From Noviherbaspirillum pedocola (lineage in GTDB: Bacteria > Pseudomonadota > Gammaproteobacteria > Burkholderiales > Burkholderiaceae_D), in the NCBI RefSeq assembly GCF_016632335.1, contig NZ_JAEPBG010000001.1, forward strand, positions 186,001 to 250,000: 64,000 nt of DNA. Direction: 5' to 3'. This document shows, one piece after another, positions 53,779 to 61,644 of this stretch. The position numbers were made by a program, and so were the translations under genes. The notes below the pieces were generated by a model that was given only the letters and a program-made list of their open reading frames with translations, was not told where the DNA came from and searched no databases. Position 1 is the first letter of the stretch. Every line of letters begins with the position of its first letter.

Positions 53779-55899
53779 CTATTGCGTCTTTCGCTCGAAA
53801 AGCGGTTCCCGGCCATTGCGGATGCGCCGCGTGTTATCCATCTCCAGAACAAGCGAAAGCAGGTCGCGGGTCTGGCGCAGCGTTTCATACTTTTCCAGCG
53901 CGGCCTCGTCTGCATCCAGCAGGTTCCGCGCCTTCAGAACCAACAGCATTTTTGCACGCTCGAACCTGAGGGTCCTGAGAACGCCCCTGACCATGTCCTT
54001 CAGCGCATTGACGTCGGCGGGCGGCTCGTGGAGGTAGGAAAGCAGCGTGGAGGTGGCATTGAAAACCTCGTCGGTCACCTTATCCTGGTTGTCGCTCGCG
54101 AATGCACCCCATTCGGTGTAATGCGGACCGTCTTCCCTTGCGGCATACACCACCGACTGGACAGGCTTGTAGCTCGGCAGCTGCTCCAGCTCCTCGCGCG
54201 CCCGCCGGAACTTGTCGCTGGCGAACAATTGCTGCAACTCCATGTGCTCGGGCTGCGAAATGCGGGGCGCGCGCCGGGATCTGGGCACGCGTTCACCCGC
54301 TTCGACCTTCGCGGATTTCGTGCTCGAAGTCGTCAATACCGACGCCATCGACGACGCCGCCTGGTGCGTGACCAGTACGCTGTCGCCGGAATGCTCGCGC
54401 CGGGTCTTGCGCGGCTTCGACCTGGCGGGTTTATCCCTGTCCTCCGGCGACGATTCCTTTGACGACGCCTTGCTGCTCTTGCCGCTCTTGCTGGCCTTGC
54501 CGCTGCGGCTGCTCTTTGCCGAAGACTTTTTTTCGTGCGAATCGCGTCCGAGCGGCTGCGGTGCGTCGTCCTCATCCTTGTCGCGGCGCGCCTGGGAAGC
54601 GGTGTCGCTGCGGTCGAGGCGGCGTTTTCTCCTTTCGGTTTTTTCGGCGGTATTGGAGGTCGAAATGGTCGTTGCATCCGACGGCTGCCGCGGCATCACG
54701 AGCACCGACGAGGACGGCGCAGCGGCTGCCGCGCCGCCCGGCTGCCCATCCTCGGTGTCGGTGCGTATCCGGCGCAACTTGGGTCGGTCGTTCTTTGCCT
54801 TTCCCTTCACGGTCTGGCTACCGGCGGATGCTGGCAAACCGGACGAGCGCGGGCTCTTGGGCACGACCGTACTTGCCCGGTCGTCCGCCGGATTTTTCGC
54901 TTCCGACCTCGTTGAACCGGTCAGCTTCGGGTCTTTGGTGAGAAGGACCAAGGGCATGCTGCCGCGGCGCTGATGCGTTTTGCTTCCCTTGTGCGGGCCA
55001 CTGTTCGCCATCATTGGCTGGCTGGTTGCTCCCGAGCGCGCGTGGAGCGATCGCGCATAAGGCGAATCCGGCAACTCGGGGCGAGCACTGCCCGCTTTCT
55101 TCATCGCATCCATGAGTTGCGCGACCGTCTGCTTGATTTGGTTGTCGCTCTTGAACTGCGTCAGTGTTTTGCCTTGCGCCTGCCGACACAGCGTGAGCAG
55201 CAACAGCAATTCGCCACTGATGATCCCTACCAGCGATGCGTTGGGCTTCGTCAGGCATGTCTGGGCGATCTGCAGCAGAACGTGCTCACTCGGACTGAGA
55301 TCATGGCCGATCGTCCATGCCTGTTCCTGGACGGCGTAGCCATCGTTTTCCATGCTGTCGACATCCGCAAAACGGGACAATACCTTCAGTGTGAAACGCA
55401 GGGCGAGCTGGTCTTTCTCTATTTTCTCGGCGGCCCGGCCTTTCTCATTCGGCACTACGACTTCCATTACCTTCTGCTCGTTTTCGCGCCATGCCTTCAC
55501 GTAGGAATTGGGATGCGCCGCATGGTGGGCATCCCGCATCGGCGCGAGCGCGGGCGCGAGCTCCTGCACGTCCAGCGACAGATCGTTGCCGGTGCCCACG
55601 AGGTTGTTGAGAATCCTCGCTGCGTCGGAACCGCCCGGTTTATCGATCAGCTCATCATTCCATTCGCGCAACTTGCCTACGAGCGCAGCGCGCGAATCAT
55701 CGGTGAGCACTTCGCGCTCGCCGACATACACGACCCGCACCACCGGGATCTTCTGGCCGCCCATGCCTTGCGGCAGCCTGAATTCCATCGTCACGTGGCC
55801 GGTCCCGGGCTGCAATTTCAAAAATTGATACAGGCCTGCCGGTGTGGCTTGCGCATCCAGCGTGTAGGTCGCGCTGAGCGGCGTTTGTGTAACATCCAT
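53779..55899 (-). CDS. large orphan protein C with Ser/Lys/Arg-rich middle (putative effector)
   Basis: A 706-residue protein starting MDVTQTPLSATYTLDAQATP, with a strong GGAGAGAGGGA ribosome-binding site. I recognise no family. Residues 1-290 look folded (VTMEFRLPQGMGGQKIPVVR, LRFTLKVLSRFADVDSMEND, LVGIISGELLLLLTLCRQAQ). Residues 290-560 are low-complexity and highly charged, with ERRKRRLDRSD and the tract KKSSAKSSRSGKASKSGKSS followed by RSKPRKTRREHS; these resemble nuclear localisation and SR-type sequences of eukaryotes. Residues 560-706 look helical (HMELQQLFASDKFRRAREEL and onward). There is no signal peptide. It shows no obvious similarity to orphan proteins A and B. A translocated effector is possible but unproven. 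It converges on glnS. Confidence 0.65.
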   Translation of the reverse strand: MDVTQTPLSATYTLDAQATPAGLYQFLKLQPGTGHVTMEFRLPQGMGGQKIPVVRVVYVGEREVLTDDSRAALVGKLREWNDELIDKPGGSDAARILNNLVGTGNDLSLDVQELAPALAPMRDAHHAAHPNSYVKAWRENEQKVMEVVVPNEKGRAAEKIEKDQLALRFTLKVLSRFADVDSMENDGYAVQEQAWTIGHDLSPSEHVLLQIAQTCLTKPNASLVGIISGELLLLLTLCRQAQGKTLTQFKSDNQIKQTVAQLMDAMKKAGSARPELPDSPYARSLHARSGATSQPMMANSGPHKGSKTHQRRGSMPLVLLTKDPKLTGSTRSEAKNPADDRASTVVPKSPRSSGLPASAGSQTVKGKAKNDRPKLRRIRTDTEDGQPGGAAAAAPSSSVLVMPRQPSDATTISTSNTAEKTERRKRRLDRSDTASQARRDKDEDDAPQPLGRDSHEKKSSAKSSRSGKASKSGKSSKASSKESSPEDRDKPARSKPRKTRREHSGDSVLVTHQAASSMASVLTTSSTKSAKVEAGERVPRSRRAPRISQPEHMELQQLFASDKFRRAREELEQLPSYKPVQSVVYAAREDGPHYTEWGAFASDNQDKVTDEVFNATSTLLSYLHEPPADVNALKDMVRGVLRTLRFERAKMLLVLKARNLLDADEAALEKYETLRQTRDLLSLVLEMDNTRRIRNGREPLFERKTQ

Positions 55900-56041
55900 T
55901 TCCCTCTCTCCTTGACAATTAACAAACCGGCGTTTGTGTGCCGGCTGTGTCGTCAAGGTTCCTCGGCGCGCGTCGAGATGGCGATGAATGTCGACAATCT
56001 CGCCGCGCCGGCGCTCTCGGGAAGGCGCAGGCGCGGTGCGG

Positions 56042-56626
56042 TCAGGCCTGCTGCTTGCGGCTGCCGGCAATGCGTTCGACCCAGGCGGCATAGGCGTCGA
56101 TGATCGTCTGGAGGAACTTGCGCGCCGATTCATCCTGCAGCTTGCCGGCGTCGTCGAACCATTTCGCCACACCGCCGAGATAAGCCTCGGGCTGCTGCAT
56201 CGTCAGCACATCGAGGAACACCAGCGACTGGCGCAGGTGGTGATTCGCGCCGAAGCCGCCGATCGCGCCCGGCGACACGCTGATCACCGCACCAGGCTTA
56301 CCACCGGCGTACGCGCTTTTGCCATAAGGCCGCGAGCCGACGTCGATCGCATTCTTCAGCACCGAGGGCACCGAGCGGTTGTATTCCGGCGTGATGAACA
56401 TCAGGCCATCGGCGCGGCCGACGCGCTCGCGGAAGGCGGTCCATGCGGCCGGCGGCGTGCCTTCGTCGTCGGGGTCCTGGTTGTAGATCGGCAGATCGCC
56501 GATCTCGACGATGTCGAGCTTGAGCGACGGCGGCGCCATCTCCATCAGCGCGTGCGCCACCTTGCGATTGAACGATGCCTTGCGCAGGCTGCCGACCAGT
56601 ACGGCAATGTCATAGGTCTGACTCAT
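56042..56626 (-). CDS. NAD(P)H-dependent FMN reductase
   Basis: A 194-residue flavodoxin-fold reductase. The FMN phosphate loop is VLVGSLRKASFNRKVAHALM; then DGLMFITPEYNRSVPSVLKN, AIDVGSRPYGKSAYAGGKPG and GAVISVSPGAIGGFGANHHL are the conserved parts of the NADPH-dependent FMN reductase (ChrR/YieF/azoreductase-like) family. Members reduce quinones, chromate or azo dyes through FMN. A GGAG-like site precedes the ATG at 56626; the longer frame to 57055 runs antisense through the acyl carrier protein gene. Confidence 0.92.
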   Translation of the reverse strand: MSQTYDIAVLVGSLRKASFNRKVAHALMEMAPPSLKLDIVEIGDLPIYNQDPDDEGTPPAAWTAFRERVGRADGLMFITPEYNRSVPSVLKNAIDVGSRPYGKSAYAGGKPGAVISVSPGAIGGFGANHHLRQSLVFLDVLTMQQPEAYLGGVAKWFDDAGKLQDESARKFLQTIIDAYAAWVERIAGSRKQQA

Positions 56627-56870: not shown

Positions 56871-57140
56871 TCAGGTGGACCGGTCGTGCACGCCGGCAAT
56901 CGCATCGGCAAGCTGGCCCAGCGTCGCATGCGGCGGCAAAGCCAGGCCGCCAAGCTCGATGCCCAGTTCGGCTTCGACATCGAGGAGCAGATCAAGTATG
57001 TGCAGTGAATCGATGCCCAGGCTTTCGAGCCGGGAGCTGGACTCGAGCGCGGCATCGATGCAATAACGCTCGCGCAGCAGCGTCTTCAATACGGCGATGA
57101 TGGTTTCAGAGTCTGACAAGGACGCCTCCGGGATGCGCAT
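56871..57140 (-). CDS. acyl carrier protein of the DSF-type locus
   Basis: An 89-residue acyl carrier protein when started at the ATG at 57140. The phosphopantetheine site is Ser45 in LESLGIDSLHILDLLLDVEA, followed by the acidic helix II and AELGIELGGLALPPHATLGQ. It is not the housekeeping AcpP, which is shorter, more acidic and normally lies next to fabF and fabG. It is transcribed away from the RpfC-like kinase gene, with a 221-base promoter region between them, and stands 3.3 kb from an RpfF-like synthase and a ketosynthase. This suggests that it carries acyl chains for that synthase. The frame is open to 57281, so the true start is uncertain. Confidence 0.78.
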   Translation of the reverse strand: MRIPEASLSDSETIIAVLKTLLRERYCIDAALESSSRLESLGIDSLHILDLLLDVEAELGIELGGLALPPHATLGQLADAIAGVHDRST

Positions 57141-57361
57141 GGAATCGATGCATGTCGGGCCGATACGGGTATGGGGAAGACTCGGCTGCAGCAAACGGGA
57201 AAGCGCTGTGCAATCGCGGTCCGACGTGGAAAGGGGCATCTTAGGAAAGGCCGCGCGGATCGCTTCAAGAATTAGAAGCAATTAACAATGATGCGGGCTA
57301 TGCACACTTCGCACAAGCGGCCGCTGTCTGCCCGCGCCCGCCGACATGCCTGACCTATTCC

Positions 57362-59518
57362 ATGCCACTCGAACTGCAAGCTGATCCGCATGCGATGTCC
57401 GCGCGAGCGCCCGACACAGAAAACGCGCAGGATGCGCTGCAGGCGGCCGTGCTTGCCCAGGCGATGCTGCGCATCAAGCTCGGCATTCCGGTATGGCTGT
57501 TGATGCTGATCTGCATCCTGGTGTGGGGACCGGCGTCGCCGGCGATACCGCCCTGGGTCATCGCCACAGTGTTTGTCGCCAGCATCGCCTGCAACTTCGC
57601 CATGTTGTGCCTGGCGCGCCGAGCGCGCTGGCCGGCCGCCACGCTGGTGCGCCTGGGCGCGGTGATCGATCCCTTAATACTTTCCGCCGGATTGGCGCTG
57701 ACCGGCGAGCCTGGCCGGGTCTTCATCGGCTTTTACCTGTTCACGATACTCGGCTACGGCTTTCGCATCGGCCCGGAAGCCATGCGCCTGTGCCAGCTGA
57801 CAGCGCTGGCGGGATTCTGCGCCGTGGCGCTGTTTTCGCCGGCCTGGCATCTGCATCCGGTGACGCCCCTGTCAGTGCTGGTGCTGCTGGCGGTGGTGCC
57901 GCTGTATGCGCGCGTGCTGATCGGTCGGCTGCGCGCGGCACAGGCCCTGGCCGAATCGGAAAGCCATGCCAAGAGCCAGTTGCTGGCCAATGTCAGCCAT
58001 GAATTGCGCACGCCGCTGACCGGCATCATGGCTTCGGCGCAGTTGCTGCAAGAGGAGCATGCCGAGGCCGATGTGCGGCGACGCTGCGATGCGATCCTGG
58101 CGCTGTCGCGCGACCTGATGCTGCAGATTGATGAACTGCTCGATTCGGCCCGGCAGGAAGCCGGCGCGCTGAGGTTGTCGCCAACGCCGTTCCCGCTGAC
58201 CGAACTGGCCGAGGACCTGCGCTGCGCGCTCGGACCGAACGCGCTGACCAAGGGCATCGCCCTGTGCATCGATGTGGATGCGCGCCTGCCGGCGCGCTTG
58301 ATCGGCGATGCGCATTACCTGAAACGGGCGCTGCTCAACATCGGCGGCAATGCGGTCAAGTTCACCGAGACCGGAGAAGTGCGCATGCGCATTGCGCTCG
58401 CCGCGTCCGGGGTCGCGCCGGATGCCGCGCTCTGCCCGGTGCATTTCAGCTGCCGCGACACCGGCATCGGCATCGCGCCGGAGCTGCAGCAGCGCATCTT
58501 CGAGCCGTTTTTCCAGGCGTCCTGCGGCATCACGCGCAAATACGGAGGCACCGGGCTGGGCATGAGCATTGCGCGCAACATCATCGGATTGATGGGCGGC
58601 GTGCTGCATGTGACCAGCACGCCCGGACAGGGCAGCCTGTTCGAATTCACGCTATCGATGCCGGTGGCGTCGGATGCACCCAAGGACGCCGATGCGGAGA
58701 AAGCCGTGCCGGCGCCCCGGGTCGAGCCAGTCACGCCGAAGCGCGTGCTGGTGGCGGACGATAACGCGACCAATCTGCTGTTGCTCAAGGAAACGCTGGA
58801 GCGCGACGGCCACGCTGTGCACACGGTGGGCAATGGCCATGACGCGTTGCATGCGCTGGCCGCGTCGGATTTCGATGTCGTGATTCTCGACCTGAACATG
58901 GCAGACATCGACGGCGTCACGGTGCAACGGCTTTACCGCTTCGGCCGCGTGGATACGGCGCCGGTGTATATCCTGACCGCGGATGCCACCGCCGCCGAGC
59001 GGCTGGCCGGCTGCGGTGCGGCTGGCATCCTGCATAAGCCGATCAGCGCCGCGGCGCTGCGCCAGGCCGTGGCCACAGCGCCCGTGCCCGTGGGCCGGCC
59101 AGGTGCGGTGCCGGTGATGACGCTTGCGCCGCAAGCCTGTCTCGATGCGGAGGTGCTGCGCGAGCTGCGCAGCGTTTCCGACGACCCAGGCTTCCTCCAG
59201 ACGCTGCTGTCAACGGCAGCGGCGGATATCGAACGACTGGCTGCGACGCTTCGGCACGGCTTGCAGCATGCCGATGCGTCGGCGGTGCAAAGCAATGCGC
59301 ATGCTCTCTCGGGCATTTGCACCAGCATCGGCGCAACGGAACTTGCCAGCCTCAGCGCGCGGCTGCTGGCGATGGATACGCAAGACCTGGACCGCCATGC
59401 CGCGCCATTCTGCGGCGAGCTTGATGCGCTGGTACAGCAAACGCTGCATGGCTTGCATGAATGCTGCGCTTCTTCATATGGCAGGCAGGGCGGAGCATCC
59501 GGACTTGCCGCGTTGTAG
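57362..59518 (+). CDS. rpfC: RpfC-like hybrid histidine kinase
   Basis: A 718-residue hybrid kinase with the RpfC layout. After about 40 cytoplasmic residues there are five or six membrane segments between residues 42 and 190, including FIGFYLFTILGYGFRIGPEA, which resembles the GNGFRxG segment of RpfC-type sensors. The acceptor His213 is in LANVSHELRTPLTGI. The ATPase domain has LLNIGGNAVKFTETGEVRM and YGGTGLGMSIARNI. A receiver begins at RVLVADDNATN with Asp510 in VVILDLNMAD, and an HPt domain near residues 600-700 has His647 in SNAHALSGICTSIGA, where the usual HxLKG lysine is Ser. RpfC senses DSF fatty-acid signals and also binds and restrains RpfF. Its 3' end overlaps the convergent RpfF-like gene by 45 bases. 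Confidence 0.8.
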   Translation: MPLELQADPHAMSARAPDTENAQDALQAAVLAQAMLRIKLGIPVWLLMLICILVWGPASPAIPPWVIATVFVASIACNFAMLCLARRARWPAATLVRLGAVIDPLILSAGLALTGEPGRVFIGFYLFTILGYGFRIGPEAMRLCQLTALAGFCAVALFSPAWHLHPVTPLSVLVLLAVVPLYARVLIGRLRAAQALAESESHAKSQLLANVSHELRTPLTGIMASAQLLQEEHAEADVRRRCDAILALSRDLMLQIDELLDSARQEAGALRLSPTPFPLTELAEDLRCALGPNALTKGIALCIDVDARLPARLIGDAHYLKRALLNIGGNAVKFTETGEVRMRIALAASGVAPDAALCPVHFSCRDTGIGIAPELQQRIFEPFFQASCGITRKYGGTGLGMSIARNIIGLMGGVLHVTSTPGQGSLFEFTLSMPVASDAPKDADAEKAVPAPRVEPVTPKRVLVADDNATNLLLLKETLERDGHAVHTVGNGHDALHALAASDFDVVILDLNMADIDGVTVQRLYRFGRVDTAPVYILTADATAAERLAGCGAAGILHKPISAAALRQAVATAPVPVGRPGAVPVMTLAPQACLDAEVLRELRSVSDDPGFLQTLLSTAAADIERLAATLRHGLQHADASAVQSNAHALSGICTSIGATELASLSARLLAMDTQDLDRHAAPFCGELDALVQQTLHGLHECCASSYGRQGGASGLAAL

Positions 59519-60412
59519 TGCGATGAGAAAATCCATGACATGCAAGTCTTCCGGCGACAGCGCAAGCGCAAGCTCAACCCATTTCTGCGCCAGCCGCGCC
59601 ATGTCCGCGAAATCGATAGGCTGCATGCGCTCGAGCTCGTCATGCACTAGGCAGTGCGCGGTGCGGCGCCGAGCGTGGTTGGCGATATGCGCGCGCACCG
59701 TCTCGACGCCGGCGCCGCGTTCGCAAACGGCATCGATCACACCCATGTCGAACAGTTCGGCTGCAGTGTAAAGGCGTCCGGAGGTCAGCATGCGTTCGGC
59801 CTGGCGCAATGGCAGCCTGCGCGCGAGCAGCGGCAGTGCGCCGGAACAGGGAAACAGGCCAAACAGGATTTCCGGAAAGCCGAAGCTGCTGTGCGCTTCG
59901 GCTACCAGGTAATCGGCCGCCAGCGCGGTTTCGAAGCCGCCGCCGAGCGCCCTGCCCTGCACCAGCGCGATGGTGACGAGATCCGGATGCGAAGCCGGCA
60001 TCCACTCGCGCGTGAGCTGCAGGCAAGCATCGGAATACTCCAGCAAAGCGACTCGGTCGCGGCGGCGTATGCAGTCGCGAAATCGCGCCAGGTCGCCGCC
60101 CAGGCTGAATATGTCAGGATGCGCCGAGCGCAGCACCGCATAGCGTACCGGGCGTATGCCTCCCGGATGCAGCCAGTGCGCCTGCCCGGCCTTCAGCGTG
60201 TGCGTCAGCTCCAGCAATTCGCGCAACAGCGACAGCGTAAAACCTTGCGGCGACGCCGCGACTTCCTTCATCGTGATCCACAAGGTATCCGCCGGAGTGT
60301 CGCTGAAATGCAGCCCAAGGTGCTCGTATGCCGTGCGCGTCGGTGGCGGCATTCCAAAGTCCAGTACGTTCATGTCGTTCTCTCGTTGAGATTCCGGAAT
60401 CGATGGCTTCAT
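59474..60412 (-). CDS. rpfF: RpfF-like DSF synthase (crotonase family)
   Basis: A 312-residue crotonase-fold protein. RPVRYAVLRSAHPDIFSLGG and DLARFRDCIRRRDRVALLEY match the substrate-pocket region of RpfF, and both catalytic glutamates of RpfF are kept: Glu161 in LGGGFETALAADY and Glu181 in SSFGFPEILFGLFPCSG, with the 20-residue spacing seen in Xanthomonas. RpfF acts on 3-hydroxyacyl-ACP as a dehydratase and thioesterase to release a cis-2-unsaturated fatty acid (DSF). The ATG at 60412 overlaps the stop of the ketosynthase gene (ATGA) with a GGAGG site 9 bases upstream. Its 3' end overlaps the RpfC-like gene by 45 bases. Confidence 0.85.
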   Translation of the reverse strand: MKPSIPESQRENDMNVLDFGMPPPTRTAYEHLGLHFSDTPADTLWITMKEVAASPQGFTLSLLRELLELTHTLKAGQAHWLHPGGIRPVRYAVLRSAHPDIFSLGGDLARFRDCIRRRDRVALLEYSDACLQLTREWMPASHPDLVTIALVQGRALGGGFETALAADYLVAEAHSSFGFPEILFGLFPCSGALPLLARRLPLRQAERMLTSGRLYTAAELFDMGVIDAVCERGAGVETVRAHIANHARRRTAHCLVHDELERMQPIDFADMARLAQKWVELALALSPEDLHVMDFLIALQRGKSGCSALPAI

Positions 60413-61644
60413 GGTTGCGGGTCCTCCATGCAAACAGCAAGCGCGACATTCGTGCCGCCGAAGCCGCAGGAAAGGCTAAGCGCGCGCCGCAACCGTTGTC
60501 CGGTCTGCGTCGCGCCGGTCAGATGCCGCAGCGCGCAGCGCGGATCCGGCTGCGCCAGGAATGCAGTAGCGGGCAACATGGCATGCCGTAGCGCGATAAC
60601 GGTGATCGCGCATTCCAGCGCACCGGCCGCGCCCAGCAGATGTCCATGCAGTGCCTTGGTCGAACTGACCGGCACCGCATCGCCGAAGACGCTGCGTATG
60701 GCCGCGGCTTCGACCGCGTCGCCGGCCGGTGTGCCGGTGGCGTGCGCATTGAGGTAGTCGATGCTTTCGGCTAAGTAATCCGCGTCCTGTAGCGCCGCGC
60801 GCATCGCCCGCGCCTGGCCCTCGGCGCTGGGCGCGGCGACATGGAAGGCATCGGCGGCGATGCCGTAGCCGGCAAGGCGCGCCAGCTCCCACGCGCCGCG
60901 TTTGTTTGCATGCGAGGACGATTCCAGGACCAGGAAAGCGGCGCCCTCGCCTAACACCAGCCCGTTGCGGTCGGCCGCGAACGGACGGCAGCTGCGCTCG
61001 GGAGCGTTTCGATCACAGGCAGCCAGCGCGCGGGCGCCTTCGAAAACGAAAAACGTCCCGGCGCACAGCGGCGCTTCGGCGCCGCCGGCAAGCGCAATAT
61101 CGATATGCCCGTCGGCGATGGCGCGTGCCGCTTCACCAATGGCCGCCGCCGATGCGGCGCAGGCGCTGCCGAAGGTATGCACCGGGCCGCGGATGCGATG
61201 CCGTATCGATAGCTGGGCCGCCGCCGCATTGCCCATGATCGCCATTGCCGCGAACGGCGCCGCCGACTGACGCCCTTCGCACAGCAGCTGCTGGTGGCAT
61301 CGTTCGCGCGTGGCGCTGCCGCCGGCCACATTGCCGTAGTAGAGCGCAGCGCGTTCGTCACAGGCTGAGAAATCGGTGATGCCGGCTTGTGTCACTGCCT
61401 GCTGTGCCGCGAGCACCGCCAGTTGCTGGCAACGGTCGAGATAAGGCAGTTCGAGCGCATCGAAGTGCGCATCAGCGTCGATATCGACCACGCCGGCCGG
61501 ATAGCTGCGCGCCAGCGGTGGCGCATCGATGCGTTGGATTCCGGAGCGCAGCGTCAACAATGACTGCGCTACCTTGGCCACGTCATTGCCAATCGGCGAA
61601 ACAATGCCGATGCCGGTGATGAAAACCGCTTGCCCATGTCGCAC
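60409..61644 (-). CDS. beta-ketoacyl-ACP synthase (FabF/KAS II type) coupled to the RpfF-like gene
   Basis: A 411-residue condensing enzyme. It starts FITGIGIVSPIGNDVAKVAQ, with the active-site cysteine Cys162 in FGSACAASAAAIG and the two histidines His301 in LNAHATGTPAGD and His335 in STKALHGHLLGAAGALE, all in the usual order. The end SLSCGFGGTNVALAV is typical of KAS I/II. It extends acyl-ACP with malonyl-ACP. The start is a GTG at 61644 with a perfect GGAGGGAAC site, so the start is secure. Its stop overlaps the start of the RpfF-like gene. Low similarity to housekeeping FabF blocks in parts suggests a specialised synthase. Confidence 0.88.
   Translation of the reverse strand: MRHGQAVFITGIGIVSPIGNDVAKVAQSLLTLRSGIQRIDAPPLARSYPAGVVDIDADAHFDALELPYLDRCQQLAVLAAQQAVTQAGITDFSACDERAALYYGNVAGGSATRERCHQQLLCEGRQSAAPFAAMAIMGNAAAAQLSIRHRIRGPVHTFGSACAASAAAIGEAARAIADGHIDIALAGGAEAPLCAGTFFVFEGARALAACDRNAPERSCRPFAADRNGLVLGEGAAFLVLESSSHANKRGAWELARLAGYGIAADAFHVAAPSAEGQARAMRAALQDADYLAESIDYLNAHATGTPAGDAVEAAAIRSVFGDAVPVSSTKALHGHLLGAAGALECAITVIALRHAMLPATAFLAQPDPRCALRHLTGATQTGQRLRRALSLSCGFGGTNVALAVCMEDPQP

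What the first reader, a model, noticed from the sequence alone, without database searches (positions are those of the whole stretch)
56871..61644. DSF-type quorum-sensing locus with its own acyl carrier protein and ketosynthase
Seen: an RpfF-like crotonase with both catalytic glutamates (161 and 181) converges on and overlaps an RpfC-like hybrid kinase. It is translationally coupled by ATGA to a FabF-type ketosynthase, and an acyl carrier protein gene diverges from the kinase gene. Known: RpfF makes cis-2-unsaturated fatty acids from hydroxyacyl-ACP taken from general fatty acid synthesis, and RpfC senses them. Inferred: here a private ketosynthase and ACP may prepare or lengthen the acyl precursor, which would give a different signal chain or insulate signalling from lipid synthesis. 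I am not aware of a described rpf locus with this gene set in this group, but I cannot search.
Basis: partly seen in the sequence, partly recalled or inferred. Interest (0 to 1): 0.85.

Follow-up and report, generated by a model that had tools for sequence, protein, structure and literature searches.

The report
Fatty-acid signal locus, private acyl supply
A rare sister branch of the bacterial fatty-acid (DSF) signalling genes in which the signal-making enzyme travels with its own carrier protein and chain-extending enzyme, which suggests a separate chemical signal made apart from ordinary lipid synthesis.

Summary
An RpfF-like crotonase, RpfC-like kinase, ketosynthase (KS) and acyl carrier protein (ACP) form a conserved module: of 24 other loci with this RpfF type, 24 have the KS, 24 the kinase and 22 the ACP; the two exceptions are contigs that end before it. 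A congener lacking the module has the flanking genes side by side. These RpfFs form one clade, sister to 52 sampled others including the Xanthomonas DSF and Cronobacter BDSF synthases, with a changed segment after the second catalytic glutamate: Gly-Met in 113 of 113 other rows, in 0 of 25 here. The kinases lack most residues with which Xanthomonas RpfC senses DSF, though a few other kinases do too. The KS is not FabF but belongs with NodE and other ACP-paired ketosynthases. Best reading: a NodFE-like pair builds a dedicated acyl-ACP, RpfF releases a 2-unsaturated acid from it, and the kinase senses that acid. Chemistry and signalling role are untested. Eight searches of an open paper library on this question showed no such locus. 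Verdict: a new variant of DSF-type signalling.

The parts
56871..57140 (-). private acyl carrier protein (89 aa), phosphopantetheine Ser in LGIDSLH
   Evidence: Pfam PP-binding 27.6 bits, cut-off 20.8; aligned with the ACPs of relatives, NodF and AcpP; ACP found in 22 of 24 related loci
57141..57361 (.). intergenic region between the divergent ACP and kinase genes, likely holding both promoters (inferred)
   Evidence: sequence read; no promoter scan was made
57362..59518 (+). RpfC-like hybrid histidine kinase: membrane sensor, HisKA, HATPase, receiver, HPt
   Evidence: Pfam; conserved in 24 of 24 related loci; DSF-sensing residues of RpfC mostly absent
59474..60373 (-). RpfF-like crotonase (299 aa from the conserved start; 312 aa if the upstream ATG at 60412 is used)
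   Evidence: NCBIfam PRK08788 252.8 bits, cut-off 177; tree; model matches RpfF structures best; motif FPEILFGLFPCSGAL
60409..61644 (-). ketosynthase of the NodE side, catalytic Cys-His-His-Lys kept
   Evidence: Pfam; residues; trees

Best explanation
A self-contained signal module related to the rpf (DSF) system. The private ACP carries a growing acyl chain and the ketosynthase adds the last two-carbon unit or units to it (both inferred from intact residues and kinship with NodF and NodE). A housekeeping reductase turns the 3-oxo group into 3-hydroxy (inferred; I saw no reductase of this kind in the locus). The RpfF-like enzyme dehydrates the chain to a 2-enoyl form and cleaves it off as a free acid (inferred from both glutamates, the fold and its place beside DSF and BDSF synthases). 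The RpfC-like kinase beside it senses that acid (inferred) and signals through a response regulator: RpfG-like near 12 of 24 relatives, a REC-cyclase near 3, none found near the window's copy. Because the residues beside the RpfF active site and those of the sensor both depart from the classical ones, the product is probably not DSF itself but another acyl chain, kept apart from membrane lipid synthesis by its own carrier.
For: Gene set conserved: KS 24, kinase 24, ACP 22 of 24 loci, the two misses being contigs that end first. Co-occurrence in the same 6 of 100 relatives. Clean empty site in a congener. RpfF fold and place, both Glu in 25 of 25 and the Gly-Met segment changed in 25 of 25 against 113 of 113 kept. 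KS active residues kept in 25 of 25, Phe398 of FabF replaced in 25 of 25; KS in one clade with NodE and ACP-paired KS, apart from FabF; nodEF needed for alpha,beta-unsaturated Nod factor chains (PMC9048898, passages). Kinases lack Arg15, Asp17, Ser18, Glu19 of RpfC almost throughout.
Against: No chemistry was measured. No RpfG-like or REC-cyclase gene lies in the window. The DSF-residue argument is weakened because some kinases beside ordinary RpfFs also lack the Asp-Ser-Glu stretch (L043, L072, L174), and for several others the segment was not found. The RpfF equivalog model is far from reached (164 of 550 bits). One ordinary RpfF (L029) also has a KS about 0.5 kb away, 29% identical and outside this KS clade. 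Support for the two RpfF groups is moderate (87 and 90, SH-aLRT only).
Confidence: 0.55

Rival explanations
1. The locus makes an ordinary DSF or BDSF signal; KS and ACP only raise the supply of the usual precursor.
For: The module sits beside rpfB in 8 and beside an RpfG-like gene in 12 of 24 related loci, as in classical clusters; both catalytic Glu and the RpfF fold are kept.
Against: Residues beside the RpfF active site and in the sensor are changed, and Dokdonella immobilis keeps a classical rpf set as well (L168), which would be redundant.
Confidence: 0.22
2. Not a signal: ACP, KS and RpfF make a fatty acid for another lipid or metabolite, and the kinase regulates it or senses something else.
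For: Sister ACP-KS pairs sit in metabolite-like clusters with a KAS III-like protein, a methyltransferase and an FAD enzyme; the kinase lacks most DSF-sensing residues.
Against: The kinase is RpfC-like in architecture and lies with the module in 24 of 24 loci, convergent with RpfF in most of them, and RpfG-like genes are near in 12.
Confidence: 0.18
3. Chance neighbourhood of an ordinary crotonase, a FabF copy and a kinase.
For: None found.
Against: Conservation, co-occurrence, single clades and the empty site.
Confidence: 0.02

Closest known systems
Classical rpf cluster (rpfB, rpfF, rpfC, rpfG) of Xanthomonadales
   Same: RpfF-like gene convergent with an RpfC-like kinase; in 8 related loci rpfB and in 12 an RpfG-like gene are near, in Rhodanobacteraceae at what looks like the same chromosomal place (gene names of the surroundings by eye).
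   Different: ACP and KS are added; RpfF and kinase form a sister type with changed residues; the window has no RpfG-like or REC-cyclase gene near.
BDSF synthases of Burkholderia (DfsA) and Cronobacter (RpfF)
   Different: The Cronobacter enzyme falls in the other clade. BDSF systems use RpfR as receptor (PMC4504480, passages); here an RpfC-like kinase.
NodF and NodE of rhizobia
   Same: A private ACP followed by a KS of the same branch, serving the acyl chain of a signal.
   Different: They serve Nod factors; here the partner is an RpfF-like enzyme. The two KS groups are separate clades, and NodE keeps Phe398 while this KS does not.

Membership tests
RpfF, broad family (PRK08788) | score over the curated cut-off | tested here: met
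   252.8 bits, cut-off 177
RpfF, broad family (PRK08788) | crotonase fold closest to solved RpfF structures | tested here: met
RpfF, broad family (PRK08788) | two catalytic glutamates | tested here: met
   25 of 25 rows
DSF synthase RpfF equivalog (NF053515) | score over the curated cut-off | tested here: not met
   164.4 bits, cut-off 550
DSF synthase RpfF equivalog (NF053515) | Gly-Met segment after the second Glu, invariant in the other RpfFs | tested here: not met
   0 of 25 against 113 of 113
DSF synthase RpfF equivalog (NF053515) | makes a cis-2-unsaturated free fatty acid | not testable with these tools
   needs chemistry
RpfC | membrane sensor, HisKA, HATPase, REC, HPt | tested here: met
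   Pfam for the four C-terminal domains; the hydrophobic N-terminal part was only read by eye
RpfC | DSF-sensing residues Arg15, Asp17, Ser18, Glu19, Gln22 | tested here: not met
   Gln22 22 of 22; Arg15 0, Asp17 1, Ser18 1, Glu19 0 of 22 (counted by eye); residues from PMC5391125, passages
rpf cluster | RpfG response regulator near | tested here: not met
   none in the 64-kb window; near 12 of 24 relatives; one 42% match on another contig of the genome
Housekeeping FabF | FabF score and place in the tree | tested here: not met
   363 of 493.75 bits; outside the FabF clade
ACP-paired ketosynthases on the NodE side | groups with NodE apart from FabF and FabB, with an ACP gene near | tested here: met
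   clade 100/99; ACP in 22 of 24 loci. It is not NodE itself: its own clade 100/100

The most novel reading that the evidence does not exclude
A separate fatty-acid signal 'language' beside DSF: a NodFE-like ACP/ketosynthase pair builds a signal-only acyl chain on a private carrier, a divergent RpfF releases it as a 2-unsaturated acid of a new kind, and a co-evolved RpfC-like kinase reads it, in some bacteria through a nucleotide cyclase. Dokdonella immobilis would run both languages at once.
Probability: 0.45. Interest if true: 0.85.

Novelty: new variant of a known kind. Interest (0 to 1): 0.7.

Why it matters
DSF-family signals are described as drawn by RpfF from general fatty acid synthesis (PMC5941067, passages). 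A conserved, portable module in which RpfF has its own carrier and chain-extending enzyme would show how a fatty-acid signal can be insulated and given a private structure, much as NodF and NodE do for Nod factors. It provides a sequence mark in RpfF, matching changes in the sensor, and a cultured species with both systems, so what sets signal specificity becomes directly testable.

Tried and rejected
Rejected: ordinary enoyl-CoA hydratase; FabF duplicate; chance neighbourhood; a KS without its catalytic Cys (kept in 25 of 25). Led nowhere: pocket residues in PMC6361424 (no passage found for the terms). The DSF review PMC4504480 and the review PMC13220807 describe no such locus in the passages seen. 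A class-wide even draw of 369 genomes gave 9 with a match at 1e-55; none of the 8 besides G000 has this KS within 1.5 kb, and 7 of the 8 show the Gly-Met segment (L210 was not matched by my pattern). Not done: Rfam search, promoter scan, second structure prediction. No tool named the window's organism. No library of predicted structures of cellular proteins was at hand.

Rows dropped or limited: one search left out RpfF matches under 90 bits or under 150 aa and 15 short fetches of genes held in larger loci; one search also left out 11 duplicate fetches. The 113 other rows include two PDB chains and L029, which has a different KS nearby. The tree used 81 rows: 25 KS-type, 52 others picked by me for spread, and 4 ordinary crotonases of the window's genome, of which L005 is a fragment and L003 very long-branched; L002, L006 and L008 gave no row. 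Neighbours of the other RpfFs were seen only within 1.5 kb for loci fetched by the genome search (L095-L115, L123-L150, L205-L212), further out for L027-L088 and L166-L176. Of 57 RpfF matches in 56 of 250 Xanthomonadales, 30 loci were fetched: 2 have this KS, 28 have not; the other 27 matches, all weaker, were not looked at for neighbours, except G100:C23 (L168). In one search the ACP of L116 came from a wrong ORF; one search reads the right one. In one search the row L120 was cut at its start and is not counted.

Full report
What is there. On the minus strand a ketosynthase (60409-61644) is followed by an RpfF-like crotonase (59474-60373, or to 60412 with the upstream ATG). A hybrid sensor kinase (57362-59518, plus strand) converges on the crotonase and overlaps it by 45 bp, and an acyl carrier protein (56871-57140, minus strand) diverges from the kinase. 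Relatives begin with MGA[LF]DF, which fits the second ATG at 60373, so I do not rely on translational coupling.

The gene set is conserved. A scan of the genome collection (one genome for each of 84,980 species, by the tool's description) kept 80 loci of 112 for the crotonase. The 18 closest (L009-L026) all carry this KS and an RpfC-like kinase, and 17 an ACP match; in L025 the kinase is over 5 kb away. Adding five genomes of the window's own family and G253 gives 24 loci besides the window: KS 24, kinase 24, ACP 22. The two without ACP are cut: the contig of L012 begins inside the KS and that of L119 inside the kinase. The order is ACP-KS-RpfF in 17 loci; in L026, L116, L117, L118 and L120, as in the window, the ACP lies beyond the kinase. 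Among 100 relatives 25 have an RpfF match at 1e-25 or better; six reach 1.5e-86 or better, all six have this KS beside it, and these are the only six genomes whose best KS match exceeds 440 bits, the next being 341. In the congener G003, which lacks the set, glnS stands directly beside the AraC-type regulator and pobA, so the block is present or absent as a unit.

It is patchy and rare. An even draw of 369 genomes of the class gave no member besides the window's own at 1e-55. Of 250 Xanthomonadales 56 have an RpfF match at 1e-25; of the 30 matches fetched two are of this type.

The ketosynthase is not FabF. It scores under the FabF cut-off and the genome has its own FabF elsewhere. The catalytic residues are kept in 25 of 25, while Phe398 of FabF is Ala 17, Cys 6 or Ser 2. 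Of three high-ranking plasmid matches opened, two are KS genes preceded by an ACP gene and close to nodABC, hence NodE and NodF (my naming, by place), and the third is an ACP-KS pair beside a KAS III-like protein. A careful tree puts the 25 KS in one clade (100/100), inside a larger clade with NodE and other ACP-paired ketosynthases (100/99), with FabF outside. [quoted passage not shown] So the pair works like NodFE, a private supply of a signal's acyl chain, here beside an RpfF.

The kinase has changed where DSF is sensed. Cai et al. found Arg15, Asp17, Ser18, Glu19 and Gln22 of RpfC essential for detecting DSF, and Ser18Thr tolerated (PMC5391125, passages). Aligned on the QAxxR segment, 22 KS-associated kinases keep Gln22 in 22, Arg15 in 0, Asp17 in 1, Ser18 in 1 and Glu19 in 0; the four classical rows L166-L169 keep all five, one with Thr18 (by eye). 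Against a simple reading, kinases beside other RpfFs vary as well: Asp-Ser/Thr-Glu is seen in L029, L034, L076, L170 and L176, Asn-Ser-Glu in L171, but not in L043, L072 or L174, and several gave no such segment. Dokdonella immobilis has both this locus (L014) and a classical rpfB-rpfF-rpfC-rpfG set (L168).

Results that cut the other way. L029 (Arenicellales), whose RpfF is of the ordinary type, also has a KS about 0.5 kb away, on the other strand, 29% identical and outside this KS clade. So a KS beside an RpfF is not by itself the mark of this type.

Output. An RpfG-like REC-HD-GYP protein lies near 12 of 24 relatives and a REC-cyclase near 3 (named by eye). Neither is in the window; the genome has one REC-HD-GYP protein with 42% identity on another contig, a possible partner only.

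Shown: the gene set, its conservation, the clades, the residue partitions and the empty site. Inferred: that the ACP carries the precursor, that the KS sets the chain, that RpfF releases a 2-unsaturated acid, that the kinase senses it, and that the acid differs from DSF. Print record: ten searches of the held open library, eight of them on this question (43 was for RpfC, 71 for NodFE). The listings and the passages read show no rpf locus with its own KS and ACP. Most subscription papers and all bioRxiv preprints were outside that library.

Noticed in passing
L009 5080-6114, L010 5078-6121, L018 11399-12442: A receiver domain fused to a class III nucleotide-cyclase-like domain stands beside the module where other relatives have an RpfG-like protein; the output may be a cyclic nucleotide other than c-di-GMP control.
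   Followed up: partly
L014 and L168 (Dokdonella immobilis, G100): One cultured species carries both the KS-type module and a complete classical rpfB-rpfF-rpfC-rpfG set.
   Followed up: partly
L037-L087, most loci: A large betaproteobacterial group of RpfF-like enzymes (QGECLGGGFEAALSSD) has no RpfC-like kinase in most of the DNA held; its partner is unknown.
   Followed up: no
L025 14061-16825: A second KS of this type (48% identity) lies beside the kinase, over 5 kb from the ACP-KS-RpfF genes.
   Followed up: no
L177, L178, L179, L215: Sister ACP-KS pairs sit with a methyltransferase and an FAD enzyme, and in L178, L179 and L215 with a KAS III or type III PKS-like protein: possibly another acyl-starter pathway.
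   Followed up: partly
window 53779-56172, minus strand: A Ser/Lys-rich 797-aa ORF lies between glnS and the module. Congeners G001 and G002 have 631- and 643-aa ORFs with a similar start (LYQFL) at that place, alike by eye only; tblastn gave no match.
   Followed up: partly
plasmids NZ_CP060058.1 and NZ_CP060062.1, 22436-23068: Two E. coli plasmids encode an RpfF-like crotonase, 33% identical to the window's.
   Followed up: no
L029 2329-4976: An Arenicellales RpfF of the ordinary type has a different, 29% identical KS on the other strand nearby.
   Followed up: partly
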